Positions 704 through 59,520 of a stretch of 64,000 bases of DNA are shown piece by piece (the first letter of the stretch is position 1; each line of letters starts with the position of its first letter). Below the pieces are notes generated by a model. It did not search any database. It saw only the letters and a program-made list of their open reading frames with translations, and was not told where the DNA came from. The DNA is taken from positions 22,128,858 through 22,192,857 of the forward strand of contig OX387190.1 of NCBI GenBank assembly GCA_947561395.2, in the 5' to 3' direction. The position numbers and the translations under genes were made by a program. This DNA comes from Buxus sempervirens (lineage: Eukaryota; Streptophyta; Magnoliopsida; Buxales; Buxaceae).

Positions 704-936
704 ATATCGGATACACTACATTTCCTTTGTATCTGGCATATTATGTCGGATACACCGCACTTCCTTTGTATCCGGCATGTTATGTCGGATACAAGACATA
801 ATAATTTCGAAAATTAAATGCCGCCGCGAATTTGTCGGGGAATCGGCGCGAATCTCGCGGGTGGATCTCTTTGTATTTGATGAATAGTGTCGGTTATACA
901 CTGAGGTATGTGTATCCGACATATTTGGTAGGATAC
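704..936. repeat. Palindrome array, 39-bp class, cut by the LTR on its left
   Basis: Two complete 25-nt palindromes start at 729 and 768, exactly 39 bp apart, with arms close to GTATCCGGC and GTCGGATAC. The residue at 704-714 is the right arm of a unit that would start at 690, again in 39-bp register, so the LTR at 1-703 inserted inside that palindrome. A further related palindrome lies at 912-936, out of register. The element that owned this array is not otherwise recognisable here. Confidence 0.8.
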
Positions 937-1480
937 AAATCAAAAAATTACGGATTTGCCCCTGGATATTCGCAGATTCATCCGATACTCTTAGATATTC
1001 ACAGATTTGGTCCCTGCAAAATTTTGCTTTAAACCCTGGATTATTTTGCATATTTGGATATTTACGGATTGCTCCTCGAGATATTTTCTTGTGCCACTCG
1101 CCACGTGTGCGGCTTTTTGCCACGTTTGCAGCTCATATCTCCTTCATCCGGACTCCGATTTGAGCAAACTCAGTTGTGTTAGAACCGTATCGGAGCCCTC
1201 TATCCAATGGCATGGGGGTAAGCACTTGGATCGGGGTTTAGTAGAAAGTCAACTTTCAGCTCCCCCTCAAGTTTGACCACTCGCAGAACCTTCATCTGGA
1301 CTCCGATTCCTGCAAACTCAGTTGCGTTGGAACCGTGTCGGGATTCTCTATCCAATGAGATAAAGAAAGGTGGTTAACTATCACCTGATCAAAAAGTCAA
1401 CTTTTTGTCCCCTTAAGGTTTGACTTTCTGCCAGGGTTTTCATTTTCAGCACTTCCGGGGGTGCAAAAATAAGGTGCTTA
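937..1480. other. Unclassified repeat with a diverged tandem pair
   Basis: No convincing gene is present. Two diverged copies of a segment of about 140 bp lie side by side at about 1140-1276 and 1290-1431. Both contain 'ggactccgatt', 'caaactcagttg' and 'tctatccaatg', followed by 'aaagtcaact'. The short open frames here lack codon bias or recognisable motifs. It is probably remnant non-coding DNA of an older element. Confidence 0.5.
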
Positions 1481-2233
1481 CACTAAGCTTAATAATGTAA
1501 TGCCTTTGTTTTATTGGAGTAATGGCATGGCCATAGAGTGTTGCCACGACCGGTGTAGAGCAGCCAGAAACCCTGAGTAGGCCAGCATTGGATGATGAAA
1601 CCCTGAGTAGGCCGGAACTGTGTACATGGAGGTGTGGAGGTCACTTTGGCATGTTGATTAACCAATCAAATAATTACATGACATTGACCAATGTGAGGTT
1701 TTGTTTATCTAGTTTAAGGCATATTATTGGATTGTTGTAGAAATTTGTTTTCTCGAGCCGTGGATATAATGATATTGTTCTTTTGAAATCAATTGGAAAT
1801 TTTGTTGACAAACGTATTTCAGATTTAAGTACGTATTGATTTTCATTATCTATATCTTTCTGTCAAATCAATTACTAGGGGTTTTAGTCGGTTTCAATCA
1901 AATTATTACCTGCTTTACTCGTGTGATTATTTGATTCATATTTTACAACTAGTAAATTGTATTTGTGCATGCATGTGCTGTTTGCTGAGATATTCGTATC
2001 TCATTCCTTTGCTTCTGTTTTGTTTTTCAGATACGTATGGAGAGCCGATACTTGCGGGTTGTTTATTGGGCCATGTGAGTTATTACTTTGGGGTTATTTT
2101 AGCGCACTCTGTCTCATAGTTTCTTATTGAATTCATGTTTTTCCTTTACTCTGATAGTGCGATCTTGCTATACATAATAACCTCCGGAGACGAGTTACGG
2201 GTTTTCTACGTGACTTGGATCTGGGGTGTTACA
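1481..2233. repeat. Possible LTR fragment of another family
   Basis: The segment ends in GGGGTGTTACA at 2223-2233. Read on the minus strand it would begin TGTAACACCCC, a terminus common in plant Ty3/gypsy (Del/Tekay-type) LTRs. It contains a 16-bp direct repeat, aaaccctgagtaggcc, near 1569 and 1600. No internal coding region is attached, so the orientation and family are uncertain. Confidence 0.35.
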
Positions 2234-2598
2234 TATTTACACCCTTATAAAAAACTATTTTTTAATTAGAATATATAAATTTATAATATAAATATTAATA
2301 AAATATGTACTTTAGTATATAATATATGTAAAATAACATTTTTAATACATAAAAAAGATATTTAAAATAAATAAGGCGGAGTTGGTGCAGGGCAGGCTGA
2401 ACCTTAACTTGCACCTAACTCGAGTTTCGCTGTACCAAACCCGTTCCATCAGTGACAATGCAGGTTACTGTTTAACCCGTACCATTGCCAATTTGCCAGT
2501 TTTTGCCGCGCTTGGATCCTCTGTGAAGCGCATCCTCTGTGAAGCAGCACATCGTCTGTGAAGCGCAATCCAACGGACCAAAATAAGCGAAGGGTAGT
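2234..2598. other. Host flank left of Element 1
   Basis: This is AT-rich sequence up to about 2370, then a more GC-rich stretch with 'ggagttggtgcagggcaggc'. No gene is supported. Its last five bases, GTAGT at 2594-2598, are repeated at 27525-27529 and form the target-site duplication of Element 1. Confidence 0.6.
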
Positions 2599-2686
2599 TG
2601 TAGACACCCCAAATTGCACTACAAAATGAGAAAATAATGAAAACATTAATTGGAATTTAAAACAGGCCAAAAATGCATGAAAATCA

Positions 2687-2819
2687 ATAATTTAAGCCTT
2701 GACCGTATTGTATATATGGGCTAAGTGCGCCCGAATTTTATATACGGACACGCAGCGCCCGTAATACATATACGAACACCTTTGGACCGTAAATCATTTA
2801 CGGACACATCAGACTCGTG
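2687..2819. repeat. Palindrome array, 28-bp class, in 5' LTR of Element 1
   Basis: Four 21-nt imperfect palindromes start at 2715, 2743, 2771 and 2799, exactly 28 bp apart, preceded by a half-site ending at 2707. The arms follow the pattern TACGG(G/A)C and G(C/A)CCGTA. The array lies about 180 bp upstream of the TATA box at 3001. Confidence 0.9.
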
Positions 2820-3032
2820 CGAGTTTTATTCTTCTCTCGATTTCTGAGCTTTATCTTTAGTCCAATATCCCTTTAAATGAGCGAATTATATATTCGTGCG
2901 AAATATCTTTGTGGATAAAGGATGGGCATGATCTTGTGTTTAACTCAAACTGAAACTCTATCTTGTCAAACCTTGGACCAACCATACCCCTGGCTTTGCC
3001 TATAAATAGAGGGCCTTTCCTCAAGCAAAGGG

Positions 3033-5848
3033 TGTGAGACACGAAAAAAAATCACCCGAAGATGATCATCCCTCCGTCAACACATGGACTCAACGCAAAA
3101 ATGGGAGAGTCACCACCATTCAGATTTTGGGTGAGAATGGACACCAAAAGAATTAAAGATAAGCAAAAATATCAAAAAAGTGCTAAAAGGCAAATTCTAG
3201 GGTAAAAATAGCCCTACTTGAAAATCAAATCCAGAGATGGGTAAGGGGATTAGATTATGAATGGGGGAAGGTGTAGGCACCCCCATTCATCCACATGAGG
3301 TGGTTGCCAAGTGTTTGTTCATGCTAAAAGAAAATAGGAAGCTTGCTAAAAAATCATGAAAAACCTTAAAAAAGGAACAAGTATATGATATATTCACATG
3401 AAGATCCAAATGGATTTTAGATCTTCTCTTATGTCAATATCATTTCTGAAATGTCATAAAAAGATGGAAATCCAAGCAAAAGAATGTACAAATCCAAGTT
3501 GAATCAAATCCGGAAAATTCGGTGAAAAGTAATGCCATTTGTCTTGAAATCATTCAAATCCAATTTTAAATCAAATCAAACCAAATCCATTTGAAAGATT
3601 ATGGTAAATAATAGCCTCATGCAAAATTTCAAGCAATTCCGGGTGAAAACCTAGGAGTTATGTTCCTTGTAAGGTTTCTGCTAGGGATGATTAAAAGTAG
3701 CAAGTAGACAACTTTGGAAAATCACCTAGAAAAATCCACCCCATACAAACCCACGAAATTTGGTGTGATTGAAGTTTGTATGGCCATCTTTCAAAAGAAA
3801 CTAGCCTCATACAAAAACTCATTCGGATGTTCCTTGGGTGGTCTCCTGAACAGGCCCCGAAGATCACAGATTTACCCATAAAAGTACTAATGAGCAGCTC
3901 TGAGTAAATCTGTTACAACCAATAATTCAAATGGAGTCAAAAAATTATGAAACCAACTAGATTTAAAAATAGACTCATAAAGGAGTGCCCAGAAACAAAA
4001 ATCACTCGAATCGGACTTAAAACGAACACATGGCGCTCCGTCGAAGTGACAAGTTCTGTATTTGAACCTGAACTGTCCAATCAACTTCGACAGAGAGGTG
4101 TCAAACATCCGCTAGATAGAAATTAATGAAATTTGGTGGACATAAACTGGACAGCCTCACATTTCCCATGGTTCTAGAATCGCTCCAAAATGCATCCGGA
4201 CGATGAAGGTATGAGCGTCTGAAGTAAGGGTATAGTTGCTGTCAAGCTAAGCCACTTTTGAAGAAAACCAAATCCGAAAAGTGATAAAGTGTGTGCCATT
4301 CGTGCAAGATGAACACAAAACCTTTAAAAATCATCCAAAAACATTCCAGAATTGATTGAGGCCATTTATTTGAGATTTATCACAATGAATGCAATAAACC
4401 CCAAAATGTGAGCCTATCCCACCAAAATGGTGCTATGTATGTGCAAGTGTGAAAAACCATATAAGATCAATAGAACAACATAGCATACATACATATTCAT
4501 CAAAATAAGGTTCTAAAACAACCTAGGGTTCCGTTCCATTATCGTTTCCCTCTGTTCTCTCTCCCCGTTAAACACGGTTCTTCAAGATAATCAAGGGTAC
4601 TTTGAATATGAAACGGTTTACAATCAATCAAAAAGGCTTTATGCTACATAGGTTCTAGTACTAGGGTCAATCCCCGGTCTCGTTTCTCCTAAATCTCGCC
4701 TCCACGTTTTACGGCTAGGGGGAGTCTCGAGATACTTTGAGCCGGAGAAGGGTTTTCACACACAAAGAAGGCCTTATTCTACAGAAAGGTAGAAGAAGAG
4801 ATCTAGATCTAGGAATGTAAAAACAGAAAATAAAAGAAAAGTTTGAGGCTTACCTGGGTTCTAGAAGCGATCCCGCAACGGTTTTCTTCTTCTCTTGGAG
4901 TTCTTCTTGGCGAGAATTCAAAACAAGAGTTGATTGCCATTTGCTTAAGGAGGAGCCTCCTATTTATAGGCAAAGGCTAGGGTTAGGGTTGGTGAGATTG
5001 GTAGACACAACATAATGTCTATAGCCCACCAACCTTAACCCTAGGGCTATTTCGGAGATTTCCACTCATTTAATGAGGGATATGATGGTAAAAGTGAAAA
5101 GCTCTCGGAAAACCCTAATTTTGAGTAAAACTTGTGTATCCGGTATATCAGGCCGGATACACAAGGGCCTTAAGGTATCCGGTATATAATACCGGATACA
5201 CTGAAGCTCTCTTGTATCCGGTATGTTCCACCGGATACACAGAAAGGTACTTGTATCCGGCCTGAGTTGCCGGATACAAGGAAAAAAGCCTTTTTTCCAA
5301 ATTTTAACACAGGCAATACTTATTTACATGTAATATCGTTTAAGTAAATGTCCTCGTATTTTTTAATCTCCATTTACTTAAGATATTACATGTAAATAAG
5401 CAAACACCCCCCCATTTGAATCCATTAAAAATAGTTCCAGACCCAAATTCCAAGTGAATAAAAAGTCAACTTTCCAGTTTTAGGCAAAATTCTGATTTTT
5501 TAGGTCTGGAAAAAAAGTTCAATATGTTAAAACCAAGGTATTCGTCAAGATTTAAAATCTCAAAAAATTCTTTTATGCGATAACATGACTAAAAACCTGA
5601 TTATCGGGAAAAATTATCTTGAAATTTGGCTTTAAAAAATATTTCATTTTCTGGGGTCAAAAGTCAACAAAATTCAACCGGAAAAAGCTTGACTTTGCAC
5701 AAAAGATTGAATTCGGGCCTTTTCCTTTTTCGTTTTGGATTCAAATGGGTTAAGTATCTCAAACCCAATGCAAAGAATTGAAAATTCCAATAAAATATTT
5801 CTCTCCTTCAAGATTTATCAAAAATCGTGCAATTTTGGGGTGTCTACA
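3033..5848 (-). repeat. Solo LTR (39-bp class) inside the 5' LTR of Element 1
   Basis: Read on the minus strand it runs from TGTAGACACC to a degenerate GTCTCACA and is flanked by AAGGG at 3028-3032 and 5849-5853. The uninterrupted sequence of the target survives in the 3' LTR at about 26310-26335, which proves the insertion. It has a TATA box (minus strand, 4961-4970), a splice donor at 4854/4853 and the palindrome array at 5136-5277. The short frame from the ATG at 4941 is broken by an extra T, unlike the related LTRs at 10179 and 57134. Confidence 0.95.
5136..5277. repeat. Palindrome array, 39-bp class, in the solo LTR
   Basis: Four 25-nt palindromes start at 5136, 5175, 5214 and 5253, exactly 39 bp apart. 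Arms are GTATCCGG and CCGGATAC, often extended by flanking TTG and CAA. The 14-bp spacers are not conserved. Confidence 0.93.
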
Positions 5849-6885
5849 AAGGGCCACGAAAATTTGAAGTCTAAGAAGCTCCAAGAGAAGAGAGGAATCC
5901 CTGCTGCTCTGCTTGCTCAATCCAGGTAAGTCCCTTTTCCCTTTTATTTTCTGTCTTCAATTCTAGAAGTAATAGGATCTTCTCTATTGCTGTAGAATAA
6001 GGCCATCTTTGATTCTGTATTCCCAAACTTATCTCCAAGTACCTCAAGAGTCTCTCTAGCCGTAAAACGTGAAGAGAGAGCTAGGGGAAAAGAGAACAGG
6101 TGGATCCGTAGGGTAGACACCCATGTGCTCTAATCTGTGAGATATGGCTGCTTTGGATATTCTGATCATGTGGTTTTTATGTTGAATCTAAATGAATCAC
6201 ATGAATCCATGATGTTTATAGCATGACATCCCCACTTTTTGATAAAATTTGGATTTTTCACATATTTGCACCTACAGCACTGTTTTCGTGATTTTTGGGA
6301 TTTTAGGCTAGGATCTTGGATCCATCATGATCAATATGGTAGATTTGGATCCAGAAGCCTGAAAATAAATTCTAGGGTTTCATGATGTGGTTTTTGAGTC
6401 CTTTTTCATTATTGAGAGAAGACTCTACGGTCTAAGTTCTCAACTTTTGATGTTCTTCATCAACGTGGGTATTTTTGGATTTGATTTCTTGATTTAAGGT
6501 GAAATTTGGGCTTTATCTATGTCCTGGAATGTTCAAGTTTAAATCTGAAATATTTTATAAAAATCATATTTTTCTAGATTTCTAGAATTTAACTTGAAGC
6601 CAGATTTTTTAAGTTTTCACTTTAAATTGATTTTATTTGATTTTATCTCAATTTTGTTTTAATCATGAAACCCGAGGAATGGTATGATCATATTTGAAAG
6701 TTCTGGATTAATCAGACTATTCGTATGAAAAAACCATACAATTTTGTCTTTATGTGATTTTTCATGATTTTTATAGAAAGCCTTTTTTCTGTGTAAAACA
6801 TGAACAATACCTGACAACCACCTTGTGTGGATGAATAGGGGTGCCTAACACCTTCCCCTGTTCATAACCTAATCCCCTTACCCAT

Positions 6886-7521
6886 TAAATAGACTATTGT
6901 TTTGCATTATTTTCCTGTCATAGGGGTGTCATGGTGCCCATTGGTTCGGGATAAAATTGGTCCCAAAATATGCATGTTTTTTAAAATTGGTGCAGCCCAT
7001 AGGAAGAGTTTCTAACTCTGATTAGAATCAATCCTACACAATGTTCATACAAGAGGCAACAAAAGGGTACCAAACCCCTGAATATAGTGTCAATTTGGAG
7101 GGTACATGTGCCCTCCTAAACAAGTGTTTTTGCAAAAAAGGCCAAGATCCACTTTGGGACAGTTTAGAAGCTTTGCAATGGGTGAACCGTATGTTTGGAT
7201 GAACAATCAAAGTGATCAAATCATGTAAAAACTGGGAAAACATAAAAGAGCTCCGTAGAACCGCAGTTGATACACGGGATGGGCTCGCCCGTATTGGTTA
7301 TACGGGCTGGGTTCGCCCGTGTTTTCCATACGGTCACGGCGTGCCCGTAATTTGAATACGGGCAGGACTGGACCGTACTGTGTATACGGTCTTAGCGGAA
7401 AATTCAATTTTAATCAGTTTTTCCAACTAAATCTTGTTCCTTTAACCTTTAAATAATGATAAAGGGAAATGAGTTTGAATAAAATGCTTCCAAAAAAAAT
7501 AAATAAAAAATATGAGAGAAA
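6886..7521 (+). other. Leader of Element 1 before the tandem array
   Basis: Non-coding leader shared with Element 2 (minus strand, about 46335 down to 45720), including the conserved piece around 'cctgaatatagtgtcaattt'. It holds the palindrome array at 7273-7405. The left edge at about 6886 is a deletion junction that removed the LTR end, the primer-binding site and roughly 0.85 kb of leader, judged against Element 2. Confidence 0.75.
7273..7405. repeat. Palindrome array, 28-bp class, in the leader of Element 1
   Basis: Four 21-nt palindromes start at 7273, 7301, 7329 and 7357, exactly 28 bp apart, followed by a half-site at 7385. A clean example is tacggtcacggcgtgcccg at 7329. The array is inside the predicted leader intron, just upstream of the tandem array. 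Confidence 0.9.
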
Positions 7522-8112: not shown

Positions 8113-8349
8113 ATTTTCTCTTTTTGTGGGACCTGTTGGAAGCCCTAGAATATTCCAACAATTCTAAAAAAAAAAAAAAGAAGCAAATAAAGAAACAAAA
8201 TCCAAACTCGTGTTCACCCAGCTTGCATATAGGCATTCCTAGGCATGTGAATGAGATTAAATGGACAATGATATTTTTCCTTTATCTTGTTGCCAGGTAC
8301 TAATATACTTGCAATCATAGCTCCTGTAACCAGATCAAGAGGTCGTGCC

Positions 8350-10178
8350 ATGAATCCCATTGAGACTGAAGCTGATGCTCCTCACCCAGATATTGTCTTG
8401 CTTCAGGAACAGGTGGCAGGACTAGCCCGAATGCTAGAAAACATACTGTCGGTGCAGGCCCAACAAGTACAAGCCCAAAATCAAGCATCCACTTCCAACC
8501 CAGCACCTCCACCCCAGATCAATATTCCACCTCCGGTTCAACCTATTCCTGAACCCATCTATGAACCCACCCCTGAACCTATACTGATCAGGGATGATAC
8601 AGTGGAGTCAGACAAAGTAAAGGAAAAGGAAAGGATGAGGGAAGAAGTTGAAAGGAAATTCATGCACAGACTAGAGATGATCCAAGACGAACTGAGAGAA
8701 GTAAAAGGGGTGAACAACTTCGGGGGCACAAATTTTGAAGACTTGTGCCTATACCCCAACGTTAACCTGCCAGCTAAGTTCAAGTGCCCAGACCTAGACA
8801 AATATGATGGCACTGGTTGGCCCATGAGCCATCTGAAGCTGTACTGCGGTGCCCTATGCCAGTTCGGGCGAGATGAGGGCGTCTTGATTCAGCTCTTCCA
8901 AAGGAGTTTAACTGGAACTGCATTGAGATGGTTCGCCACTTTAGACCATGGGAAGATCAAAAGATGGAAGGACCTAGCAGATGCCTTCCTAGCTCAGTAC
9001 CGGTTCAATTCAGAGATCGTGCCAGATAAGTACGACGTAATGAGAATGGTAAGGCTAGGGATGAATCCGTGAGACAGTATGCCAAAAGATGGAGGGAGAC
9101 TGCCTCTCAAGTCAGGCCACCCATGCTAGAGCAGGAGATGATTTCCACTTTCATCAGTACACTGGGTCAACCATTCTATAGCCACCTGGTGGGTCAGACC
9201 ACCACTAATTTTGCGGCTTTGGTACAAGTGGCCGATCGAATTGAGGACGGAATCAGGTCGGGTAAAATAATTGACCACTCTGCTATGGTCAGTCAGCAGG
9301 ACCCCAATCTGAAGAAAGGAAGCGGGATAAAGAAGAATGGGAACAAGAAAGAAGGGGAGGTGAACATGGTGCAGCCACCATCGGGCCCTAACAAGCCCAT
9401 ACAAATCAACATACCTGCTCATTTTCCTATTCCATCTGCTCCGTCTACCTAGGCCCCCATGAGGGTTAATGTTCCAGCAGCACCCTCAGACCAAAGGAGG
9501 GCTTTTACTAAGGAGGAAAAGGATGCCTATTTCGCAGCAAGGAGAAATAGGGTTTTCACCCCTATTCCAATGACTCCTTCTCAGTTGCTGCCCACTTTAT
9601 TGAAAGTAGGGTATATCACTTTAAGAGAACCCAATCCGAATGCATCCAAGGGGAGAAACTATGACCCCTCCACCACTTGTGATTTCCACATGGGTGCACC
9701 TGGGCACTCTACTGACAAGTGTTGGTCGTTGAAACATGCCATTCAGGATATGCTTGACCAGAATACCCTGTCTTTTAATACAGGGGCTCCTAATCCTCCT
9801 AGAACAGATATTGGACAAAACCCTCTGCCTCAGCTTCATGGGGTAGGCCCATCTAATGTTATAGGTGTCATCTCTTCTGATGAAATAACCTTTGACCCAT
9901 CCCAGTTAATTGCTCCAATAGGGACAACGGTCAAAGTTTATTTCGACAAAAGAAATAGCAATGAAGAAATAAATGTAATTTCAAAGGGGAATGAGAGTGC
10001 TGCTGAGAGCATTAGCTCCTCTCTGGACCGGGTTTCATCTCTCATGGTCCAAATGAATATAGCCAAGCCGCCTTTGGTTATCGATTGCAGTCCATCCACC
10101 CATTTTTCACCCACTCTATCAAGACGACAACTGGTCATAAATTGTGACCACCTTAATGCATCAGTCACTTCTGCAACC
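8350..10178 (+). pseudogene. gag: gag of Element 1 (capsid and zinc knuckle)
   Basis: This encodes the structural Gag protein of the retrotransposon particle. The ATG at 8350 is the first after the predicted acceptor at 8297. The capsid region includes 'GTGWPMSHLKLYCGALCQFG' and 'YAKRWRETASQVRPP'. A zinc-knuckle-like CX2HX5HX4C motif (CDFHMGAPGHSTDKC) lies near 9680-9725. The copy is broken by a single-base loss near 9049 (compared with Element 2), by a TAG at 9450-9452, and by the solo LTR inserted at 10179. Its N-terminal half is over 90 percent identical by eye to Element 2 gag and clearly more distant from Element 3 gag. Confidence 0.9.
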
Positions 10179-10278
10179 TGTAGACACCCCAAATTGCACA
10201 GCAAAAAAATCAATAATCAGCAAAAATCATTATCTCCTTTGAAACCAGCACAAAAATGTGAAAAAGCAAGTTTTCCTA

Positions 10279-10420
10279 GTATCCGACAACTCAGGTCGGA
10301 TACAAGTGCATCTGTTCATATCCGATGGAACATGCCGGATACAAGTAGCCCTTAATGTATCCGGGAACATATGCCGAATACACATAGGCGCTAGTGTATC
10401 CGACCTGACATGCCGGATAC
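10279..10420. repeat. Palindrome array, 39-bp class, in the solo LTR
   Basis: Four 25-nt palindromes start at 10279, 10318, 10357 and 10396, exactly 39 bp apart. The first has arms GTATCCGA and TCGGATAC, fully complementary over 8 bp. The array is about 167 bp upstream of the TATA box. Confidence 0.94.
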
Positions 10421-10614
10421 ACTAGTTTTGCTCAAAATTAGGGTTTTCCGAAAGCTTTTACCTTTTACCATCATATCCCTCATTAAATGAGTGGAAATCT
10501 CAGAAATAACCTTAGGGTTAAGGTTGGTGGGCTATAGATTTTATGTTGTGTCTACCACCTCACCAACCCTAACCCTAGCCTTTACCTATAAATAGGAGGC
10601 TCCTCCTTAAGCCA

Positions 10615-10716
10615 ATGGCCATTAACTCTCTTGCCAACAATTCTTGCCAAGAACTTTTGCCAAGAAGAGCTCCAAGAGAAGAGGGAAACCGCTACGGAAG
10701 TGCTTCCAGAATCCAG
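10615..10716 (+). other. Short LTR reading frame ending at the splice donor
   Basis: A 34-codon frame beginning MAINSLANN runs from the ATG at 10615 and ends exactly in phase 0 at the donor. The equivalent frame in Element 3 (59080-59006) is 25 codons, begins MAKKLEIEE, and is also in phase 0 and in frame with gag after predicted splicing. The ATG is only about 28 bp from the TATA box, so it may lie at or before the transcription start; translation is uncertain. Confidence 0.4.
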
Positions 10717-12701
10717 GTAAGCCTCAAACCTCTCTTTAATTTTCTGTTTTTACATTCTAGATCTAGATCTCTTCTTCTACCTTTCTGTAGAATAAGGCCC
10801 TGATGTGTGTATGAAAACCATTCCCCGGCTCAAAGTATCTCAAGACTCCCCCTAGCCGTAAAATGTGAAGGCGGGATCTAGGAGAAACGAGACTGGGGAT
10901 TCATCCTAGTGCTAGAACCCTCTTTTGAATAAGTCTTTTGAATCTTTGAAGACCGTTCCATATTCAAAGTACCCCAAGATTATCTTGAAGAACCGTGTTT
11001 AACGGGGAGAGAGAACTAAGGGAAACGATAATGGAACGGAACCCTAGGTTGTTTTAGAACCCTCTTTTTTATTGATCTAAATGTATGCTATAAGCCTTGT
11101 GATTCTATGAAAACCCTTTCATATTCATAGTACCCTAAGATTATCTTGAAGAACCGTGTTTAACGGGGAGAGAGAACTAAGGGAAACGATAATGGAACGG
11201 AACCCTAGGTTGTTTTAGAACCTTATTTTGAATGATATGAATGCATACTATCTTTGCTACGTTGTTGGAATGGTTTTTACACCTACACATACATAGCACA
11301 TGATTTTGGTGGGATAGGCTCATATTTTGGATTTATTGCGTTTATTGTGATAAATCTGAAATAAATAGCCTCAATCAATTCTGGAATGTTTTCAAATGAT
11401 TTTCAAAGGATTTTGATTAATCTTGCACGGATTACACACACTTCATCACTTTTTGGAGTTGGTTTTCTTCAAAAATGGCTTAACTTGACAGCAACTGTAC
11501 CCCGACTTCGAACACTCATAACTTCATCGTCCGGATGAATTTTGGAGTGATTCCAGAACCATGGGAAAGGTGAGGCTGTCACTTCGACTGAGCGCTATGT
11601 GTTTATGCCTGTAAAATTTCATAAATTTCTATCGAGCAGATTTTTGACACCTCTCTGTCGAAGTTGATAGGTCATTTCAGATCTGAATACGGAACCTGTC
11701 ACTTCGACTGAGCGCCATGTGTTTGTTTTAAATCCGATTCGAGTGATTTTTATTTCTGGGCACTCCTTTATGAGTCTATTTTCAAATCCAGTTGGTTTCA
11801 TAATTGTTTGACTCCATTTGTGTTGTTGGTAACAGATTTACTCAGAACTGCTCATCAGCACTTTTCTGGGTAAATCTGTGATCTTCGGAGCCTGTTCGGG
11901 AGAGCACCCAAGGCACATCCGAATGAGTTTTTGTAAGAGGCTAGTTTCATTTGAAAGATGGCCATACAGATTTTAATCACACAAAATTTCATGAATTTAT
12001 ATGGAGCTGGTTTTTCTAGAGGGTTTTCCAAACTTGCCCACTTGTCACTTTTGTTTATCTCCAGCAGCAACTTCAAAGGAGGCATAACTCCTAGGATTTC
12101 AACCGGATTTACTTGAAATTTTGCACGAATCTCTTATTTACCATAATCTTTCAAATGGATTTGGTTTGATTCAATTTAAAATTGGATTTGAATGATTTCA
12201 AGATAAATGGAATTATCTTTTACCAAATTTTCCGGATTTCACTCAACTTGGTTTTTTGCAATCTTTGCTTTGATTTCTATTTATCGTTGATATTCCAGAA
12301 GTGATATTGACATAAAAGAGGATCTGGAATCCATTTGGATGTCTCATGTGAAGATATCACACATTTGTTTAATTCTTTTTCAATGGTTCAATGATTTTAG
12401 TAAGCTTTCTTACTTTTTGCATGAACAAACACTTGGCAACCACCTTGTGTGGATGAATGGGGGTGCCTAACACCTTTCCCCGTTCATAATCTAATCCTCT
12501 TACCCATCTCTGGATTTGATTTTCAAGTATAGTTATTTTTACTTTAGAATTTGGCCTTTTAGCCCTTTTTGCATATTTTTGAATCTTTTGGTGTCCATTC
12601 ACACCCAAAATTCTGAATGGTGGCGACTCTCCCATTTTTTCGTTGAGCCCTGTGTGTTGACGGAGAGGGAATCATCTCGGTGATTTTTCCCATGTCTCAC
12701 A

Positions 12702-20770: not shown

Positions 20771-20861
20771 GGAAGCATCAAAGAAGACAAGGAAAGCAGA
20801 AAATGGAAGGCTCAGGGAGTTTTCAAACTATTAAAAGTGTCATAATGACGTCCCCTTTGAG

Positions 20862-20869
20862 TTTATATA
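20862..20869 (-). promoter_or_regulatory. TATA box of gene X, Element 1
   Basis: The minus strand reads TATATAAA, about 95 bp upstream of the gene X ATG and 36 bp downstream of the palindrome array at 20906-21038. Confidence 0.6.
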
Positions 20870-20905: not shown

Positions 20906-21038
20906 TACGAGCATGGCGTGCCCGTATAAATGATACGGACACACTGTGACCGTGAAAAATTTACGGGCAGAGTGCGCCCGTATTAATATTACGGGCACGG
21001 CTTGCTCGTAACCTAATTACGGTCCCTTCGGGAAAATG
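20906..21038. repeat. Palindrome array, 28-bp class, upstream of gene X of Element 1
   Basis: Four 21-nt palindromes start at 20906, 20934, 20962 and 20990, exactly 28 bp apart, with a half-site at 21018. Arms match the LTR and leader arrays of the same element (TACGGGC and GCCCGTA). The interval 20771-21237 otherwise holds only the promoter and the 3' flank of gene Y. Confidence 0.93.
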
Positions 21039-36487: not shown

Positions 36488-36499
36488 ATTAAAATATGC

Positions 36500-36507
36500 T
36501 ATAAATA
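36500..36507 (+). promoter_or_regulatory. TATA box of gene X, Element 3
   Basis: TATAAATA lies 13 bp after the palindrome array and 117 bp before the gene X ATG at 36617. Confidence 0.7.
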
Positions 36508-36616
36508 TGATTGGCCGCAGGATTTGAGTCGTTTTTACGACTTTTTGAGTTTAGAAAACCCTTTTTTCGCTTTTTTCTTCCTCCCATTGATTCTTAGCAT
36601 GCTCCCATCATCTCCA

Positions 36617-45720: not shown

Positions 45721-47172
45721 TTTATTTTGTTTTTTTTTTGAAGCATTTTATTCAAAGTCATTTCCCTTTATCATTATTTAAAGGTTAAAGGAACAAGATT
45801 TAGTGGGAAAGACTGATTAAAATTAAATTGTCCACGAAAACCGCATATACAGTACGGTCCGGTCTTGCCCGTATTTAAATTACGAGCAAGCTGCGACCGT
45901 ATAGTTAACACGGGCGAGCCCAGCCCGTATAACCAATACAGGCGAGCCCAGCCTGTGTAACAAATTCGGTTTACGGAGCTCTTTTCTGTTTTTTCAGCTT
46001 TTTTACATGATTTGATCACTTTAATTGCTCATCCAAACATACGGTTCACCCATTGCAAGGCTTCTAAACTGTCCCAAAGTGGACCTTGGCCTATTTGCAA
46101 AAACACATGTTTAGGAGGGCACATGTACCCTCCAAATTGACACCATATTCAGGGGTATGGTACCCTTTGGTTGCCTCTTGTATGAACATTGGGTAGGATT
46201 GATTCTAAACAGAGGTAGAAACTCTTCCTATGGGCTACACCAATTTTAGGAAACATGCATATTTGGGGCCAATTTTATCCCAAATTGATGGACACCATGA
46301 CACCCCTATGGCATGAAAATAATGCAAAAATTAAGGTTACCTTGTTTACCTTCAATATGGCATCCGCATTATGCCCTGGTTTGTAAACCATAAAAACGGC
46401 CTTCCCACAATTACAAACCCATATCCCCACGTAATTGTGTACTTTAGCTAAAAAACGTGTAACTCCACCTTCAAGCATAGGGGTTTTGGGTTTTGGCTTA
46501 ATGGCAACTTAGCACTCAAGCCTAGTGATGACCAGAATCGAATCACAGATCCACGTTATCATCACATCATTGACCCAAAGTTCTAAGGTGAATGTTTTCA
46601 CTTTCGCTTTCCGAAGTATCGACCTCGTTGCGCCAAGCTACACACATTTGGGTTCAACTTCCTATAGGTTATAGGTAGGCTGTGTAAAAAAATATTATGT
46701 GCATAGTGCATTATAAAAATTGGGTGCAGTCACAACGTCCCAAACCCTTGCCACTCTTTTCGTAGCCATGCATATACAAACCAAGGCATAGTAGGAAAGC
46801 ATATATAAAGTAAACAAATACACAAAGTAGTCCCTATAGCACCTAAAACATGCTCATAAAAATCATGCAATCATGCAAACATCTGACCATGTTATACACC
46901 AAAAAATCATCATGGAGATCATGTTGAAAATTAAAACATGCTATTATAAAAATATAGCAAGAAATAAACATGGTTCAGCAAAACGAACCTGCCCTACGTA
47001 TGTTTCTAGAAACAATCCTATAAATAAAAATTAAGCATGTTTCTACCCCCATGAATTCTTAAGCAATAATTCAGATTTAAAACATACCCACCATGCTTAA
47101 GAACACAAATTAGCAAGCAAATCCAAATATATCAAAAACATGAACAAACACCAAAAGGCTGAAATCCTCAAG
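45721..47172 (-). other. Leader of Element 2
   Basis: Non-coding sequence between the primer-binding site and the tandem array. It holds the palindrome array at 45853-45957. Blocks around 46190-46330 and 46500-46700 (with 'gaatcgaatcacagatcc') are also found in the Element 3 leader near 55440-55900. No gene is supported. Confidence 0.75.
45853..45957. repeat. Palindrome array, 28-bp class, in the leader of Element 2
   Basis: Four 21-nt palindromes start at 45853, 45881, 45909 and 45937, exactly 28 bp apart. They correspond in position to the leader array of Element 1 (7273-7405). Confidence 0.92.
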
Positions 47173-47192: not shown

Positions 47193-49012
47193 TGTGAGAC
47201 ATGGGAAAAAAATCAAATTCAATGACTTCCTCAATCATCACATGGGATTGGTTAAAAACAAAGAGTCGCCACCATTCTATTTAGGTGTGAATGGACACCA
47301 AAATATCAAATAAGCACAAAAAGGCAATTTTAGGGTAAAAATAACCCTTTTAAAAAAACAACCAGAGATGGGTAAGGGGATTAGGTTATAAACAGGGGAA
47401 GGTGTTAAGCACCCCTATTCATCCACACAAGGTGGTTGCTTGGCATTGTTCATGTTAAAATAAAGGAAAAAGGGCTTGCTATAAAATTCATAAAAAATCA
47501 CATAAAGGCAAAAGTGTATGGTTTTTTCATACGAATAGCCTGATTGATCCAGAACTTTCAAATATGATCATACCATTCCTAGGGTTTCATTATCAAAATA
47601 AAATTGAGATAAATCAAATAAAACCAATTTAAAGTGAAAACTTCAAAAATCTGACTTCAAGTTAAATTCTAGAAATCTAGAAAAATAAGATTTTTATAAA
47701 ATATTTCAAAATTGAACTTGAATAATCTAGGACATAGGTAGAGCCCAAATTTCACATTAAATCAAGAAATCAAAACCAAAAATACCCACGTTGATGAAGA
47801 ACATCAAAAGGGGAGAACTTAGACTGTAGGGTCTTCTCTCAAAAGTGAAAAACGATTCAAAAACCATATCATGAAACCCTAGAAGTTACTTTCAGGCTTC
47901 TGGATCCAGATCTATCATATTGATCATGATGGATCCAGGATCTTAGCCTAAAATCATAAAAATCACGAAAACAGTGATGTAGGTGCAAAGTGGTAAAAAT
48001 CCAAATTTTATAAAAAAAAGTGGGGATCTCATGCTATAAACATCATAATCATCATAGGATTAACCCAGATTCAAAATAAAATCATTAAAGCATGATCAGG
48101 ATATCCAAAGCAGCCACATCTCACAAATTAGAGCACATGGGGGTCTACCCTACGGATCCACCTGTTCTCTTTTCCCCTAGCTCTCTCTTCACATTTTATG
48201 GCTAGAGATGATTTTTGAGGTACTTGGAGATAGGTTTGGGTATACAAACACAATCAAAGGCCTTATTCTAGAAAAAAAGAGAAAAACAGATATAGGGTTC
48301 TATTCTAGGGATCCACCTGTTCTCTTTTCCCCTAGCTCTCTCTTCACGTTTTACGGCTAGAGAGACTCTTGAGGTACTTAGAGACAAGTTTAGTAATACA
48401 GATAAAAAGATGGCCTTATTCTACAGCAATAAAGAAGATCCTATTACTTCTAGAATTGAAGACAGAAAATAAAAGGGAAAATGGACTTACCTGGATTGAG
48501 CAGGCAGAGCAGCAGGGATTCCTCTCTTCTCTTGGAGCTCCTTAGACTTCAAATTTTCGTGGCCTTTTGCTTGAGGAGAGGCCTTCTATTTATAGGCAAA
48601 CACAGGGGCATGGTTGGTCCAAGGTTTGGCAAGATAGAGTTTCAGATTGAGTTAAACACAAGGATAATGCCCATCCATGGCCAAATAGGATAAATAAGAG
48701 ATTTCGAAGGGATAAATGAGAGAATTCGAATCTCTTAGAGAGATATTTGGGTGAAGATAAGGCTCCAAAATCGAGAAAGGTAAAATTTGCACAAAGACCC
48801 CCGTGCCCGTATATATATTACGGGCGCGCCCTGCCCGTATTATTAATACGGGCACGCTGTGCCTGTATATCCACTGCGGGCATGACCAGACCGTAAACAA
48901 AATACGGGCATGACCAGTTTGGCCAAATTTTATATTTTTTTGACCTGTTTCAAATCCCAATTAATATTTTCAATTATTTTCTCATTTTGTAGTGCAATTT
49001 GGGGTGTCTACA
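47193..49012 (-). repeat. 5' LTR of Element 2 (28-bp class)
   Basis: It is 1820 bp on the minus strand from TGTAGACACC (49012) to GTCTCACA (47193). The array is at 48791-48923, the TATA box at 48587-48594 and the donor CCAG|GTAAGT at 48491/48490. A segment of about 170 bp beginning 'ggatccacctgttctctttt' is duplicated (48150-48290 and 48308-48400), which accounts for its greater length than the 1638-bp LTR of Element 1. The predicted leader intron runs from 48490 to 44549. Confidence 0.93.
48791..48923. repeat. Palindrome array, 28-bp class, in 5' LTR of Element 2
   Basis: Three full 21-nt palindromes start at 48819, 48847 and 48875, with half-sites in register at 48791 and 48903; every step is 28 bp. 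Arms are TACGGGC and GCCCGTA. Confidence 0.92.
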
Positions 49013-50346: not shown

Positions 50347-50481
50347 CTGGGGAAGAAAAAACAAAGAAACAAGTCAGCTCCCATTTAATCCCAGTCACAC
50401 CTATAAATGTTGATAAGTGAGTTAGGTGAACACAAGTTCGGATTTATTTGCTTTTTTCTATATTTTTCCGTTTTTTTGTTT

Positions 50482-54793: not shown

Positions 54794-57113
54794 TTTATTT
54801 GCTTAATTTTCTTGGTTTCAAGTTCAAAAGTTTGATTGAAACATGTTTGAGGTGAGTTGGTATCAAGAAATATGACACCTTTGTTCCCTTTTTATGTATC
54901 TTCTTTAAGCTTGTGGAAAAGGTAGATTTGAGTTTCAAAATTAGGTTAAATCCTAAAAAAATTTTGTTTTTTTTTTTTTTGTTTTTGAAACATTTTTTTA
55001 TTATCTTTAGGGTTCCTAAGGATTATCTACAGTGTTTTAGGCATTTTATTCTAAAAATTTGGGATGAAAAACCAATTTACACATTTCCTGGCTGTATCCG
55101 ACATGACATGTCGGCTAAGGCAATGTCTTATTGTATCCGATATAAATGATCGGATACATGCATATATCCTTTTTGCCGATGAGTTATGTCGGATAAGAAT
55201 AAAATGCTGTTTAACTGACATGAGTTGTCGGTTAATGTCGAAATGGCCTTTTTGACTCATTTTTTCACTAGATCATGTTATTTTCATTCCCACTTGATGT
55301 TCACCTTAACTTGGCCTCTAAATCCAACCCCAAATTGGGCTTTTACATCATACTTGAAAAATTCACAAACTCATGAGGGTACATGCCCCTTTGACAGTTA
55401 GACACCAATTCATGGATCTTGTACGCTTGGTTGCCTCCTACATGGACTTTGGGTAGGATGACTTTTAAATTGAGTTGGAAACTCATCCTATAGGTTACAC
55501 CAACCTTAGGCTATAGACAACTTTGGGAAAAATTTTATCCCAAACATATGGACACTATGGCTTTTAGTTTACATGAAGATAAATAAAAAACATGGCTTTA
55601 CCTTGTCACCTTGTGTTATCTTCAATATGGTATTCATATTATACCTTGGTCTGTGAAACATGCAAACGGCCTTCCCACATTTACACCCAATTCCCCAAAC
55701 GCAATTGTGTACTTTAGCTGAAAACATGTTTCTCCACCTTCAAGCGTATGGTTTTTGGGTTTTGGCTTAATTAGCAACTTAGAACTCAAGTCTAGTGATG
55801 CCCGGGATCGAATCACAGATCCCATTGTCATCACATCATTGACTCAAATTCTAAGGTAAATGTTTTCACTTTCGCTTTCCAAAGTAACAACCTCGGTGCG
55901 TAAAGCTACACACATTCAGGTTCAACTTCCTATAAGTAATGGGTAGGCTGTGCAAAGTGTTTAAAGTGCACAAGTGCATTTATAATTGAGGTGCATTCAT
56001 AACGTCCCAGCCCCTTGCCACTCTTTTCGTAGCCATGCATACAATTTCAAGCCAAGGCAAATATGACAATCATATTGAAATTGAAAACACAAGCACAAGA
56101 TAGTAAACACCCAAACATGCTCATGATCATCATATACACAAAAGTGACACCCAAAACATGTTATCACATTGTACAAACAATTAAAACATGGAAAGCATGC
56201 TTGAAACCCTAAAAGCATTACCTAAATTTCCAGATTTCATGTTTTTTTTCTCATGCTCAAGGTGCATTCTTCCGACCTAAATTGAAGCCTAAAAAATACA
56301 ACAACTAGGCATTTTGTACAAGGAGCATTTGACCGGAGAAAACATGCTTGAAAATTCCTCAAAATTTTTGTTGAATTCTGGGTTTTATGGTTCTCATTTT
56401 CATGCTCAAAGTGCATTATTTATACCCCAAATCAAAGCCTAAAAAAACCCAGCAACTACTTGTCATGGTACAATAAGGGTTTTGATTAGGTAAAACATGC
56501 TAGACAATTCCCAAAACTATACTAAATTTCCAGATTTTGTATTCTTCATTTTTATGCTCAAGTTACATTGTTGTAGGCCCAAATCAAAGCCTAAAAATAC
56601 AGCACCTAATAATATGGTACAAGAAATGTTTTGTTAAGGGAAACATGCTTGAAAAATCCCAAAATTACCCACTGAATTTCCAGATTTTGTATTCTTCATT
56701 TTTGTGCTCAACATGCCTTATTCATACCCAAATCAAAGCCTAGAAATTCAATAACTAAAAATATGGCACAAGAAAGGTTTGAATTGGGGAAAACATGCTC
56801 GGAAACTCCCAAAAATGCCCATTGAGTTTACTGAATTCATGCACTTCACTTTCATGCTCAAAACATGGCACTAAAACCCCCCAAAGCAAGGCATAAAAAT
56901 ACAACAAGTAGGCATGTACACCGAGATAAGACCATAAACATGATTCTAGACATAATCAAAAAATATACACATGCCTTTATCCATGTCAATTTCAAAGCAT
57001 CCCAATCAGATTTGAAATACAACAATATACACAAATAAAATAGGCAAAGTAGCAAACCTTCAAAAATAAAGAAAAAGCATGAACAAATACATAAAATGGC
57101 TTAAATCCACAAC
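54794..57113 (-). other. Leader of Element 3 between array and primer-binding site
   Basis: Non-coding. It holds the palindromes at 55094-55235. Blocks shared with the Element 2 leader lie near 55440-55900. From 56220 to 56860 a segment containing 'aaatttccagattttgtatt' or 'catgctcaa' recurs four or five times at about 130-bp intervals, a weak tandem repeat. No gene is supported. Confidence 0.7.
55094..55235. repeat. Palindrome array, 39-bp class, in the leader of Element 3
   Basis: Four 25-nt palindromes start at 55094, 55133, 55172 and 55211, exactly 39 bp apart. In the last two the outer arms have changed to TTTGCCGA/TCGGATAA and TTAACTGA/TCGGTTAA, yet length and complementarity are largely kept. 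Confidence 0.9.
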
Positions 57114-57131
57114 TCCCCAGCAGAGTCTCCA
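57114..57131 (-). other. Primer-binding site of Element 3
   Basis: Two bases after the LTR end the minus strand reads TGGAGACTCTGCTGGGGA. It differs from the Element 2 site at two positions, both explainable by C-to-T or G-to-A change. Confidence 0.78.
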
Positions 57132-57133
57132 GT

Positions 57134-59520
57134 TGTGAGACATGGAAAAATCACCTTAGATGATCCCCTCCGTCAACACACGGGCTCACTGAAAATGGGA
57201 GAGTCGCCATCATCCAGTTTTTACGGTGTGAATGAGCACCAAAAGATTCAAAATAAGCAAAATGGCAACGTCTAGAGTAAAAATAACTCTACTTGAAAAT
57301 AAAATCCAAAGATGAGTAAGGGGATTAGATTATGAATGGGGGAAGGTGTTAGGCACCCCCATTCACCCACACAAGGTAGTTGCCAAGTGTTGTTCATGCT
57401 AAAAAAATAAGAAAGCTTGCTAAAATAATCAAAAAACCTTGAAAACGGATTAAAGAAATGTATGATACTTTCACATGACAAATCCAATGAATTCTAGATC
57501 CTCTTTTATGTCAGTATCACTCCTGGGATATCACCATTAGATGGAAATCAAAGCAAAAATTGAATAAAACCAAATCCATTTGAAAGATTATGATAAATAG
57601 AAGACTCATGCAAATTTTCAATCAAATCCGGTTAAAATCCTAGGAGTTATGCTCCTTTAAAATCTGCTGTTGGAAAGTGTTTAAAGTAACAAGTGGGCAA
57701 CTTTGGAAATTCATTTAGAAAACTTGGCTCCATATGAATCCGTGAAATTTGTCATGACTTAAGTATGTAGAGCCATATTTCAAATGAAACTAGCCTCATA
57801 CAAAAATCCATCCGGATGTGCTTTGGGTGACCTCCCGAACAGGCCCCGAAGATCATAGATTAACCCAGAAAGGTGCTGTTGCGCAGTTCTAAGTAATTGT
57901 ATTACCCACGACACAAATGGAATCAAAAAATTATGAAACCAACTGGATTTGAAATTAGACTTCCAAATAAAAGCATAGAAACTAAAATCACTCGAATTGG
58001 ACTTAAAACGAACACATGGTGCTCAGTCAAAGTGACAAGTTCAACAAACTGGCCTGAACTGACCTACCACTTTCGACTGAGTGGTGTCAAAAATCCACTT
58101 CATAAAAATTGATGAAATTTTACAAAAATAAACTAGACAGCCTCACCTTTCCCATGGCTTTTGAATCACTCCAAAATTCATCCAGATGATGAAGTTACGA
58201 GTATCCGAAGTTAGGGTACAGATGCTGTCTCGTTTTACCACTTTTAAGTAAAATCAATTCAAATCAGTGATTGGATGTGTGTGATCCGTGCAATGTAAAT
58301 CAAAACCACTTGAAAAAATGTTAAAAAACCTTTAGGAAGAAATAGGGCACAAGCTTGGCTCACCATTCTCTCCGATTGGAAAGAATATGCCAAAAACCCC
58401 CAAAAGTGAGCAAAAATCCCCAAAACCGAGAGGTTAGACCTAGAGGTCTTCAATACTCAAAAAGAACTTAATTGAAATCATTTTGAAAATCATTGAGATA
58501 CATCCCAGAACTGCTTGGGGCTATTTATTTCAGAACTATCACAATGAATGCAATAGATCCGAAATACAAGCCGATTCCGACAAAAAACAAGTGCAATATG
58601 TGTATATGTGTAAAAATCATTTCTTCAAATATAACCACACATAGCATTCATATCAATCAAAAGGGGTTCTAAAAAGACCTAGGGTTCCGTTCCATTCTCA
58701 TTTCCTTTAGTTCTCTCTCCCCGTTTAACGGTTTTTCGAGATATTCTTGGGGTACTTTGAGTATGAAACGGTTTTCATAGAATCAAAAGGCTTTTCAACA
58801 AGGTTCTAACACTAAGGATCAATCCTTAGTCTCGTTTCCCCCAGTTCCCGCCTTCACGTTTTACAGCTAGGGGGAGTCTTGAGGTACTTTGAGTAGAGGA
58901 AATGTTTGCATACACAAAGAGTAGGCCTTATTCTATAGAAAGGTAGAAGAAAGAGCTAATCCTAGAATGTAAGAACAGAAAAATAAATAGGGGTTTAAGG
59001 CTTACCTGGGTTTCTGGAAGCAGTGCGGCAGCAGTTCCCTTCTTCACTCGGAGCTCTTCAATCTCCAACTTCTTGGCCATTTGCTTAAGGAGGAGCCTCC
59101 TATTTATAGGCAAAGGCTAGGGTTAGGGTTTGCATGATGCTAGACACAAAATGATGTCTAAAGTCCATCAACCTAAACCCTAAGGCTATTTCCGAGATTT
59201 CCACTCTTTAAGTGAAGGATATGATGGTAAAAAGTGAAAACTCTCGGAAAACCCTAATTTTGAGCAAAAACCTTGTATCCGACAACTCAGATCGGCTACA
59301 AGGACACCTATATGTATCCGACGACATATGTCGGATACATTAATACCTGCTTGTATCCGACGACTTGTGTTGGATATAAAAAGGTCCTCTTGTATCCGAT
59401 GACTCATGTCGGATACAATAAAAAAATGCTTAAATCTGAATTTTTGTGCTGGTTTTAAAGAAAAGAATGATTTTTGCCAATTGTTCATTATTTTTCCAGC
59501 GCAATTTTGGGGTGTCTACA
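57134..59520 (-). repeat. 5' LTR of Element 3 (39-bp class)
   Basis: It is 2387 bp on the minus strand, flanked on the right by GGGTG (59521-59525). The TATA box is in 'ctatttatagg' at about 59100-59110, the ATG of the short frame is at 59080 and the donor at 59006/59005. It lacks about 85 bp near 57570 that the 3' LTR has, with 'aaaaccaa' at both ends of the missing segment, suggesting a microhomology deletion. Otherwise it is very close to the 3' LTR. Confidence 0.95.
59275..59416. repeat. Palindrome array, 39-bp class, in 5' LTR of Element 3
   Basis: Four 25-nt palindromes start at 59275, 59314, 59353 and 59392, exactly 39 bp apart. The second has arms GTATCCGAC and GTCGGATAC, complementary over 9 bp. 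Confidence 0.94.

What the first reader, a model, noticed from the sequence alone, without database searches (positions are those of the whole stretch)
704..59416. Fifteen palindrome arrays in two exact formats: 25 nt every 39 bp and 21 nt every 28 bp
The sequence shows arrays at 704, 2687, 5136, 7273, 10279, 20906, 25431, 25975, 31416, 32214, 36346, 45853, 48791, 55094 and 59275. In one class the units are 25 nt with GTATCCG/CGGATAC arms and start 39 bp apart. In the other they are 21 nt with TACGGGC/GCCCGTA arms and start 28 bp apart. Most arrays have four units. Arms, unit length, period and copy number are kept while spacers and palindrome centres vary. Such constancy is not expected of ordinary satellite decay and suggests a site read by a protein array or a structured RNA.
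Basis: seen in the sequence. Interest (0 to 1): 0.93.

Follow-up and report, generated by a model that had tools for sequence, protein, structure and literature searches.

The report
Family-specific palindrome arrays at retrotransposon promoters
Two families of plant jumping genes each carry their own set of short mirror-image DNA sites in rows beside several of their promoters and in the stretch before their first gene, which looks like a private docking code for a protein that each family may make for itself to switch itself on or escape silencing.

Summary
The arrays are real and far above chance. All 15 lie in or beside Tat-clade LTR retrotransposons of a 676.5-Mb plant genome: class A 30,737 exact genome hits against 25 for the reversed pattern, class B 11,294 against 6. 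Each element carries one class at every position seen: LTR U3, 5' untranslated region, and upstream of two antisense genes (aORF1, DUF7745; aORF2, plant mobile domain, PMD), mostly near a TATA box. Both classes share one skeleton, CCG-N11-CGG dyads, separated by N22 (A, period 39) or N11 (B, period 28); only the flanks differ. Elements picked by PMD type alone carry the matching class: B in 13 of 14 (1 had none), A in 10 of 10. Arms are more conserved than centres, linkers and, narrowly in B, flanks; centres do not covary, against RNA hairpins. Best reading: DNA sites for a dimeric, family-specific trans-acting protein, probably self-encoded (PMD aORF2 first candidate), comparable to VANC anti-silencing in VANDAL transposons. 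Binding is untested, and the A and B lineages are deeply diverged overall, so the partner protein is inferred. A host factor remains possible.

The parts
704..936 (.). Class A array remnant: units 729-753 and 768-792 plus a lone unit 912-936; cut at 704 by the 3' end of an LTR (1-703)
2599..3032 (+). E1 (class B element) 5' LTR, first part, starting TGTAGACACC; interrupted by a solo LTR
2701..2805 (+). Class B array in U3 of E1 5' LTR (4 dyads, period 28); TATA 3001-3008
3033..5848 (-). Solo class A LTR inserted in E1 5' LTR, 5-bp target duplication AAGGG
5136..5277 (-). Class A array (4 units, period 39) in U3 of the solo LTR; TATA 4961-4968, 167 bp away
5849..6885 (+). E1 5' LTR, second part; its 3' end is missing
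7259..7391 (+). Class B array in E1 5' untranslated region, inferred to lie inside an intron between the LTR donor and gag
8272..10178 (+). E1 gag region, frames broken (Pfam Retrotrans_gag, just below its cut-off)
10179..12701 (+). Solo class A LTR inserted in E1 gag, target duplication CAACC
10279..10420 (+). Class A array (4 units, period 39) in U3 of that LTR; TATA 10587-10594
15027..17756 (+). E1 reverse transcriptase, RNase H and additional RNase H (RVT_3) in 15027-16796; integrase core in 17049-17756
19016..20827 (-). E1 antisense aORF1, DUF7745 (PMD-related)
20862..20869 (-). TATA box upstream of aORF1 (TATATAAA on the - strand)
20906..21024 (-). Class B array in the aORF1 promoter, 36 bp from the TATA box
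21238..24061 (-). E1 antisense aORF2, plant mobile domain protein in several exons (start codon presumed); PMD exon 22984-23649
25445..25548 (-). Class B array upstream of aORF2
25887..27524 (+). E1 3' LTR
25989..26093 (+). Class B array in U3 of E1 3' LTR; TATA 26289-26296
29188..31659 (-). E3 (class A element) 3' LTR
31416..31557 (-). Class A array in U3 of E3 3' LTR; TATA 31242-31249
32204..32267 (+). Class A array (2 units) in the aORF2 promoter, 7 bp upstream of TATA 32275-32282
33370..36147 (+). E3 antisense aORF2, PMD protein in several exons (start codon presumed; frame broken in this copy)
36346..36487 (+). Class A array (4 units) in the aORF1 promoter; TATA 36500-36507, 12 bp away
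36476..37934 (+). E3 antisense aORF1, DUF7745/PMD-related (the open frame, not the gene, begins inside the last array unit)
39270..43695 (-). pol region assigned to E3 (reverse transcriptase, RNase H, integrase)
45839..45943 (-). Class B array in E2 5' untranslated region
47193..49012 (-). E2 (class B) LTR, nested in E3 gag
48805..48909 (-). Class B array in U3 of the E2 LTR; TATA 48587-48594
55094..55235 (-). Class A array (4 units, some degenerate) in E3 5' untranslated region
57134..59520 (-). E3 5' LTR
59275..59416 (-). Class A array in U3 of E3 5' LTR; TATA 59101-59108

Best explanation
The arrays are DNA-level regulatory sites of Tat-clade retrotransposons, read by a dimeric protein that differs between families. 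Each unit is an inverted pair of half-sites built on CCG-N11-CGG; a row of 2-5 units lies at the genomic-RNA promoter in U3, upstream of two antisense genes, and in the 5' untranslated region. Bound dimers would open or activate the transcription units of that family together, and could shield the CpG and CCG cytosines of the core from methylation. The likeliest reader is encoded by the element: the antisense PMD protein aORF2, perhaps with its PMD-related neighbour aORF1. This would be a positive feedback loop with anti-silencing, like VANC in VANDAL transposons. Shown here: the sites, their grammar, positions, conservation, concerted class and match with PMD type.
For: Concerted class inside an element: E1 carries B at 5 of 5 sites, E3 A at 5 of 5, E2 B at both surviving sites. 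Distance to TATA: 7 bp (E3 aORF2), 12 bp (E3 aORF1), 36 bp (E1 aORF1), 166-167 bp in the four class A LTRs and 195, 195, 210 bp in the three class B LTRs of the window. Blind test: 14 elements chosen by class B PMD (from 150 scored of 3,383 candidates): 13 carry B arrays, 1 none, 0 A arrays. 10 chosen by class A PMD (from 150 scored of 2,883): 10 carry A arrays. 4 chosen by class A array carry class A PMD. Arms against rest, copies chosen by PMD (plus E1 in B): B arms 0.85-0.91 against between-arm 0.73-0.78; A arms 0.90-0.93, centres 0.70-0.88, linkers 0.63-0.75. Shared skeleton CCG-N11-CGG in the window and in independent stretches (95 and 58 pairs at N11; median over distances 4 and 2). Trans action: L092 keeps arrays with a gag match but no pol, aORF1 or PMD match; L093, an unrelated-LTR element with gag-like ORF and no RT match, carries B arrays in both of its identical repeats. 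PMD looks constrained within each class: 90-92% amino-acid identity with 61-74% at four-fold sites.
Against: No binding data. A and B lineages are deeply diverged overall (four-fold identity A-B: gag 0.34, RT 0.56, aORF1 0.48, PMD 0.29), and the RT, aORF1 and PMD trees all separate the classes, so co-segregation does not single out PMD: LTR, gag and aORF1 also differ by class. aORF1 shows no clear constraint within classes (amino acids 0.91 and 0.88, four-fold sites 0.87 and 0.88). No DNA-binding domain was recognised in aORF1 or aORF2 beyond PMD/DUF7745 and basic RG-rich stretches read by eye; the E3 aORF2 pieces reach PMD only below the Pfam cut-off (E=0.0056). The structure model was too poor to use (pLDDT 40). 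L093, with no nucleotide match to E1 or E3, uses the same B sites, as a host factor would also allow. 1 of 10 class A elements (L084) also has a B array; it belongs to a separate LTR in the opposite orientation. In 4 of 6 slide tests the best register lay 1-2 bp off zero or tied with it. In A-type U3 the centres are nearly as conserved as the arms (0.876 against 0.930), and in B the flanks (0.84-0.89) nearly match the arms. No TATA was recognised for E1 aORF2.
Confidence: 0.55

Rival explanations
1. The arrays are binding sites for two host transcription factors (one per class) that the elements exploit; the element encodes no reader.
For: Positions near TATA boxes are those of ordinary promoter elements. 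An element without nucleotide similarity to E1 or E3 uses the same B sites. No recognised DNA-binding domain in the antisense ORFs.
Against: All array positions of an element switch class together, while within a class every copy sampled that has arrays of its own uses the same class. One CCG-N11-CGG geometry with changed flanks in two related families fits divergence of one protein family better than two unrelated host factors (inference).
Confidence: 0.28
2. The arrays act as RNA: hairpin rows in the genomic RNA used for packaging, export or small-RNA decoying.
For: All four positions lie within the expected genomic RNA, and each unit can in principle form a short hairpin (inference; not folded).
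Against: In 68 class A units, centre pairs 10/16, 11/15 and 12/14 pair no more than shuffled columns (0.34, 0.47, 0.13 against 0.42, 0.50, 0.37), and arms keep their letters rather than their pairing. The weak excess at pairs 1/25, 8/18 and 9/17 (12, 14 and 75 of 500 shuffles reach it) could be subfamily structure. Several sites hug TATA boxes. Class B units were not tested for covariation.
Confidence: 0.07
3. The arrays are ordinary tandem repeats kept similar by recent amplification, with no function.
For: Tat elements often hold tandem repeats between pol and the 3' LTR (PMC11963269, passages).
Against: Units keep their own inner sequence from copy to copy while arms stay the same; arms exceed centres and linkers; the same format appears at four separate places with different spacers.
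Confidence: 0.04

Closest known systems
VANC / VANDAL anti-silencing system of Arabidopsis (VANC21 motif YAGTATTAY; VANC6 AGTTGTCC/AGTTGTAC)
   Same: Transposon family-specific short motifs repeated in noncoding regions; related families with different motif sets; a variable element-encoded protein (PMC5735166 and PMC10398659, passages).
   Different: VANDAL is a DNA transposon; the motifs lack CpG and the word stem 'palindrom' does not occur in PMC5735166; no fixed 39/28-bp phase appears in the passages seen. Binding and demethylation are shown there, not here.
Tat-clade LTR retrotransposons with antisense extra ORFs (Ogre, Retand, Grande)
   Same: Extra RNase H between RH and integrase, long pol-3'LTR region with antisense ORFs, PMD in 57% of Ogre elements (PMC6317226, passages); antisense gene with its own promoter reported for Grande (PMC7264820, passages); DNA-binding or regulatory role proposed for Retand TRP28 ORFs (PMC11963269, passages).
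   Different: No palindrome arrays or target sites of the extra ORFs appear in the passages seen.
Host PMD proteins MAIN/MAIL1 and the DOWN motif (CATGCAGTTT)
   Same: PMD proteins needed for expression of genes that share a promoter motif; PMD-A1/A2 clades are exclusively Gypsy-encoded, and the function of the domain is called undetermined (PMC9899485, PMC7156037, PMC5418596, passages).
   Different: By eye the DOWN motif does not resemble either half-site; it is not described as an array, and direct recognition by PMD proteins is left open there.
Gal4-type UAS, CGG-N11-CCG (recalled, from no call)
   Same: Dimer-type palindrome with 11-bp spacing and CpG-containing core.
   Different: Fungal zinc-cluster proteins; no such domain was found here. 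Analogy of geometry only.

Membership tests
Tat clade of Ty3/gypsy | Additional RNase H between RH and integrase (Ogre/Retand) | tested here: met
   E1: RVT_1, RT_RNaseH and RVT_3 in 15027-16796, integrase core in the open frame 17049-17756 downstream (definition). The E3 piece tested ends before RVT_3 was matched
Ogre lineage | PMD extra ORF | tested here: met
   PF10536 E=3.9e-16, residues 52-217 of the E1 exon; 57% of Ogre carry it, so it is common, not strictly defining
Ogre lineage | Placement on an RT-RH-INT tree, PBS type, gag-pol intron | not tested
   No reference set used; Retand not excluded by tree. PF04195 (Transposase_28) was not among the Pfam matches of the 10 antisense ORF pieces
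VANC-type anti-silencing system | Element-encoded protein paired with family-specific repeated motifs | tested here: inconclusive
   Pairing of array class and PMD class observed; binding not testable
VANC-type anti-silencing system | Protein binding causes loss of DNA methylation on its own family | not testable with these tools
   needs plants or methylomes
VANC-type anti-silencing system | VANC protein homology | not tested
   no VANC sequence was compared; aORF1/aORF2 match DUF7745/PMD
RNA hairpin array | Covariation of paired positions | tested here: not met
   68 class A units; class B not tested

The most novel reading that the evidence does not exclude
Retrotransposon-encoded plant mobile domain proteins are sequence-specific DNA-binding dimers with one conserved geometry (CCG-N11-CGG) and family-specific flank recognition. 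Each family carries a matching operator array at its promoters, giving separate self-activation or anti-silencing circuits in one genome, which non-autonomous elements parasitise.
Probability: 0.35. Interest if true: 0.92.

Novelty: new variant of a known kind. Interest (0 to 1): 0.8.

Why it matters
[quoted passage not shown] These arrays provide ready target DNA, in two classes that control for each other, for a direct binding test. If true, LTR retrotransposons as well as DNA transposons run family-specific operator systems, and changes in operator flanks plus protein could explain how sister families in one genome remain independent.

Tried and rejected
Structured-RNA reading: rejected for class A on covariation. 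Satellite decay: rejected (one search is biased, see below). 'PMD evolves fast only between types': an early impression from protein identity (RT 93%, PMD 53% between classes) was weakened by four-fold sites, which show deep divergence of gag, aORF1 and RT too. Protein database search with the PMD exon: 1040 candidates, none at E 0.001. Solved structures: one match at E=0.43 only, a single-stranded DNA-binding protein; not used. Single-sequence fold: pLDDT 40, not searched further. A third array class was sought with CCG-N11-CGG-N11-CCG, but the genome search did not complete. The genome-wide linker-length search also did not complete, and neither was an LTR-start pattern search. Print searches for palindrome arrays in plant LTR elements or with PMD: 2 papers; 1; 0; 10 of 14 listed; 0; titles and abstract starts show none, and those papers were not opened except PMC11963269 (passages).

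Bias told: the 4 class A elements on C1 were chosen by exact arm matches, so their arms are not used as evidence of conservation; they stand in the class A 'arms' value (0.946, 8 copies; 0.952 in the four-copy subset, which includes one of them), which is therefore biased. In one search, copies with indels, cut or missing arrays were dropped (used: U3 6, aORF2 8 and aORF1 7 of 10). In one search, 12, 10 and 13 of 14 source elements (E1, L035, L037, L038 and the 10) passed a 70% coverage filter; L036, which has no array, was left out. In one search two downstream stretches (L053, L055) show loose clusters of one-mismatch half-sites of mixed class; they are not unit-spaced, and no class A unit with up to 2 mismatches was found there.

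Full report
WHAT IS THERE. The window (G000:C12:22128858-22192857, a 676.5-Mb genome in 247 contigs) is a nest of LTR retrotransposons. In E1, RT, RNase H and an extra RVT_3 RNase H share one open frame, and the integrase core follows in a further open frame downstream; this places them in the Tat clade, Ogre/Retand type, by the definition in PMC6317226 (passages). Three internal regions are present. E1 (+ strand, class B) runs from the LTR at 2599 to 27524 and is interrupted by two solo class A LTRs with target duplications AAGGG and CAACC. E3 (- strand, class A) lies between LTRs 59520-57134 and 31659-29188 (95.5% identical). E2 (- strand, class B) is nested in E3 gag and lacks its 3' half; its join to E3-type pol near 43,690 is a hybrid, and the assignment of that pol and the following antisense genes to E3 is inferred from the class A 3' LTR.

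THE ARRAYS. Genome counts against the reversed control are 30,737 to 25 (A) and 11,294 to 6 (B). Every array of an element is of one class. E1: U3 (5' and 3' LTR), 5'UTR, aORF1 promoter, upstream of aORF2, all B. E3: the same five, all A. E2: U3 and 5'UTR, both B. The two solo LTRs are A; the array at 704 is A and cut.

POSITION. Bases between array and TATA: E3 aORF2 7, E3 aORF1 12, E1 aORF1 36; U3 arrays 166-167 (four class A LTRs) and 195, 195 and 210 (three class B LTRs). For E1 aORF2 no clear TATA was seen. The 5'UTR arrays probably lie in an intron: a GGTAAGT donor stands after the presumed first exon in the LTR, and a TTGCCAG acceptor stands before gag. This is read from sequence, not shown by RNA.

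ONE GRAMMAR. Counting CCG to CGG distances in the window gives 42 pairs at N11 against a shuffle mean of 1.8 (30 approximate dinucleotide shuffles). The return distance CGG to CCG peaks at N22 (18) and N11 (16). Hence A = CCG-N11-CGG-N22 (39 bp) and B = CCG-N11-CGG-N11 (28 bp), differing by 11 bp, about one helical turn. Stretches selected by PMD show the same: B 95 pairs at N11 and 61 returns at N11; A 58 pairs at N11 and 36 returns at N22. The first 5'UTR unit of two class A copies has changed outer arms (TAACCGG/CCGGTTA) but keeps CCG-N11-CGG (L070, L071; read from the sequences printed).

CONSERVATION. Copies chosen by their PMD gene, not by arrays (plus E1 in B): class B arms 0.898, 0.854, 0.909 against between-arm 0.753, 0.732, 0.781 and flanks 0.856, 0.842, 0.892 (U3, aORF2, aORF1; 12, 10, 13 copies). 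Class A arms 0.930, 0.902, 0.927; centres 0.876, 0.701, 0.782; linkers 0.746, 0.630, 0.709; flanks 0.726, 0.660, 0.738 (6, 8, 7 copies). The best slide register is zero for B aORF1 and A aORF1, a tie of 0 and +2 for B U3, -1 for B aORF2, +1 for A U3 and +2 for A aORF2. Of 952 arm letters in the class A arrays, 57 are changed, 45 of the 57 being C>T or G>A, which would fit decay of methylated cytosines after insertion (inference). That the centre pairs do not covary speaks for recognition of DNA letters.

CLASS AGAINST PMD. The element encodes two antisense genes: aORF1 (DUF7745, E=5e-8 in E1 and 5e-17 in E3) and aORF2 (PMD, E=4e-16 in E1; 0.0056, below the cut-off, in E3, whose pieces are 40-48% identical to E1's). 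Ten class B PMD copies chosen (150 scored of 3,383 candidates) plus four from the same list fetched: 13 of 14 carry B arrays and none carries an A array; L036 carries none. By position among the ten: aORF1 9 of 10, aORF2 8 of 10, U3 8 of 10, with one further B array in L066 not assigned. Class A units with up to 2 mismatches: 0 in 23 stretches of 13 of these elements (L036 left out); class B units: 99. Ten class A PMD copies (150 scored of 2,883): U3 9 of 10, aORF2 9 of 10, aORF1 9 of 10, all A; 83 class A units and 3 class B units, all 3 in L084, where the B array belongs to a separate LTR in the opposite orientation. L079 shows no aORF1 array in the stretch fetched. In the other direction, four elements chosen by class A arrays have class A PMD. 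Copies are related, so these counts are not independent events.

WHICH PROTEIN. Between classes PMD is the most divergent of the four proteins compared: 53% identity, against aORF1 75% and RT 93% and gag 73%; a second aORF2 exon is 45%. Within classes PMD is 90-92%. But four-fold sites show the two lineages are old throughout (A-B identity 0.29 PMD, 0.34 gag, 0.48 aORF1, 0.56 RT), and the RT tree of 9 copies also separates the classes (support 0.97). PMD is therefore the leading candidate by divergence, by signs of constraint within classes and by family precedent, not by proof. aORF1 is also PMD-related, so a pair of PMD proteins acting together is possible, though aORF1 shows no clear constraint within classes.

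TRANS ACTION. L092 (C1:3385600-3395599) holds a gag match but no match to protease-region, RT, integrase, aORF1 or PMD queries at 1e-4 in the 10 kb read; the two LTR pieces read are 99.8% identical over 437 bp, so it is young, and it keeps the U3, aORF2-promoter and 5'UTR arrays. L093 (C1:8109900-8116900) has no nucleotide match to E1 or E3 at 1e-10; its end repeats are identical over 1,074 bp, 12,061 bp apart; an ORF is 46% identical to the E1 gag region (E=1e-30) and RT, aORF1 and PMD queries match only at E 0.27 or worse. It carries three B dyads at 28 bp, 14 bp from its TATA (255-262), and two more further upstream. Both look like users of a protein supplied by others; about 5 kb of the L093 element was not read.

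LITERATURE. VANC passages describe the closest working system. PMD passages say PMD-A clades are exclusively Gypsy-encoded and that the function of the domain is undetermined. The Tat/Retand papers (passages only) describe antisense ORFs and variable tandem arrays but show no palindromic promoter arrays in the passages seen. The searches listed no such report; subscription journals are largely missing from the library.

VERDICT.

Noticed in passing
L093 (C1:8109900-8116900), 277-491: An LTR element of about 12 kb, young by its identical 1,074-bp end repeats, without nucleotide similarity to E1/E3, carries class B dyads directly upstream of its TATA.
   Followed up: partly
window 32284-32305; L040, L042, L044, L046 and several of L072-L090, aORF2 promoters: A CG-rich block (GTCGCGCGCGACCGCGAC in many class A copies) follows the TATA-like box of aORF2; a related block is present in class B copies.
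   Followed up: no
window 7519-8118, 44723-45708 and 50470-54800: Minisatellites lie between the 5'UTR array and gag; the one in E3 spans more than 4 kb.
   Followed up: no
window about 43,660-43,700: Hybrid junction where E2 gag joins E3-type pol, suggesting recombination or deletion between nested elements.
   Followed up: no
window 703/704: An LTR ends exactly inside a class A array; whether arrays are preferred insertion sites was not tested.
   Followed up: no
window 28930-29187: A gene-like coding stretch, read by eye, is cut by the E3 3' LTR end.
   Followed up: no
G000:C1:24189363-24234143: Three PMD copies with identical search scores are spaced exactly 22,071 bp apart, which looks like a tandem duplication of an element.
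   Followed up: no
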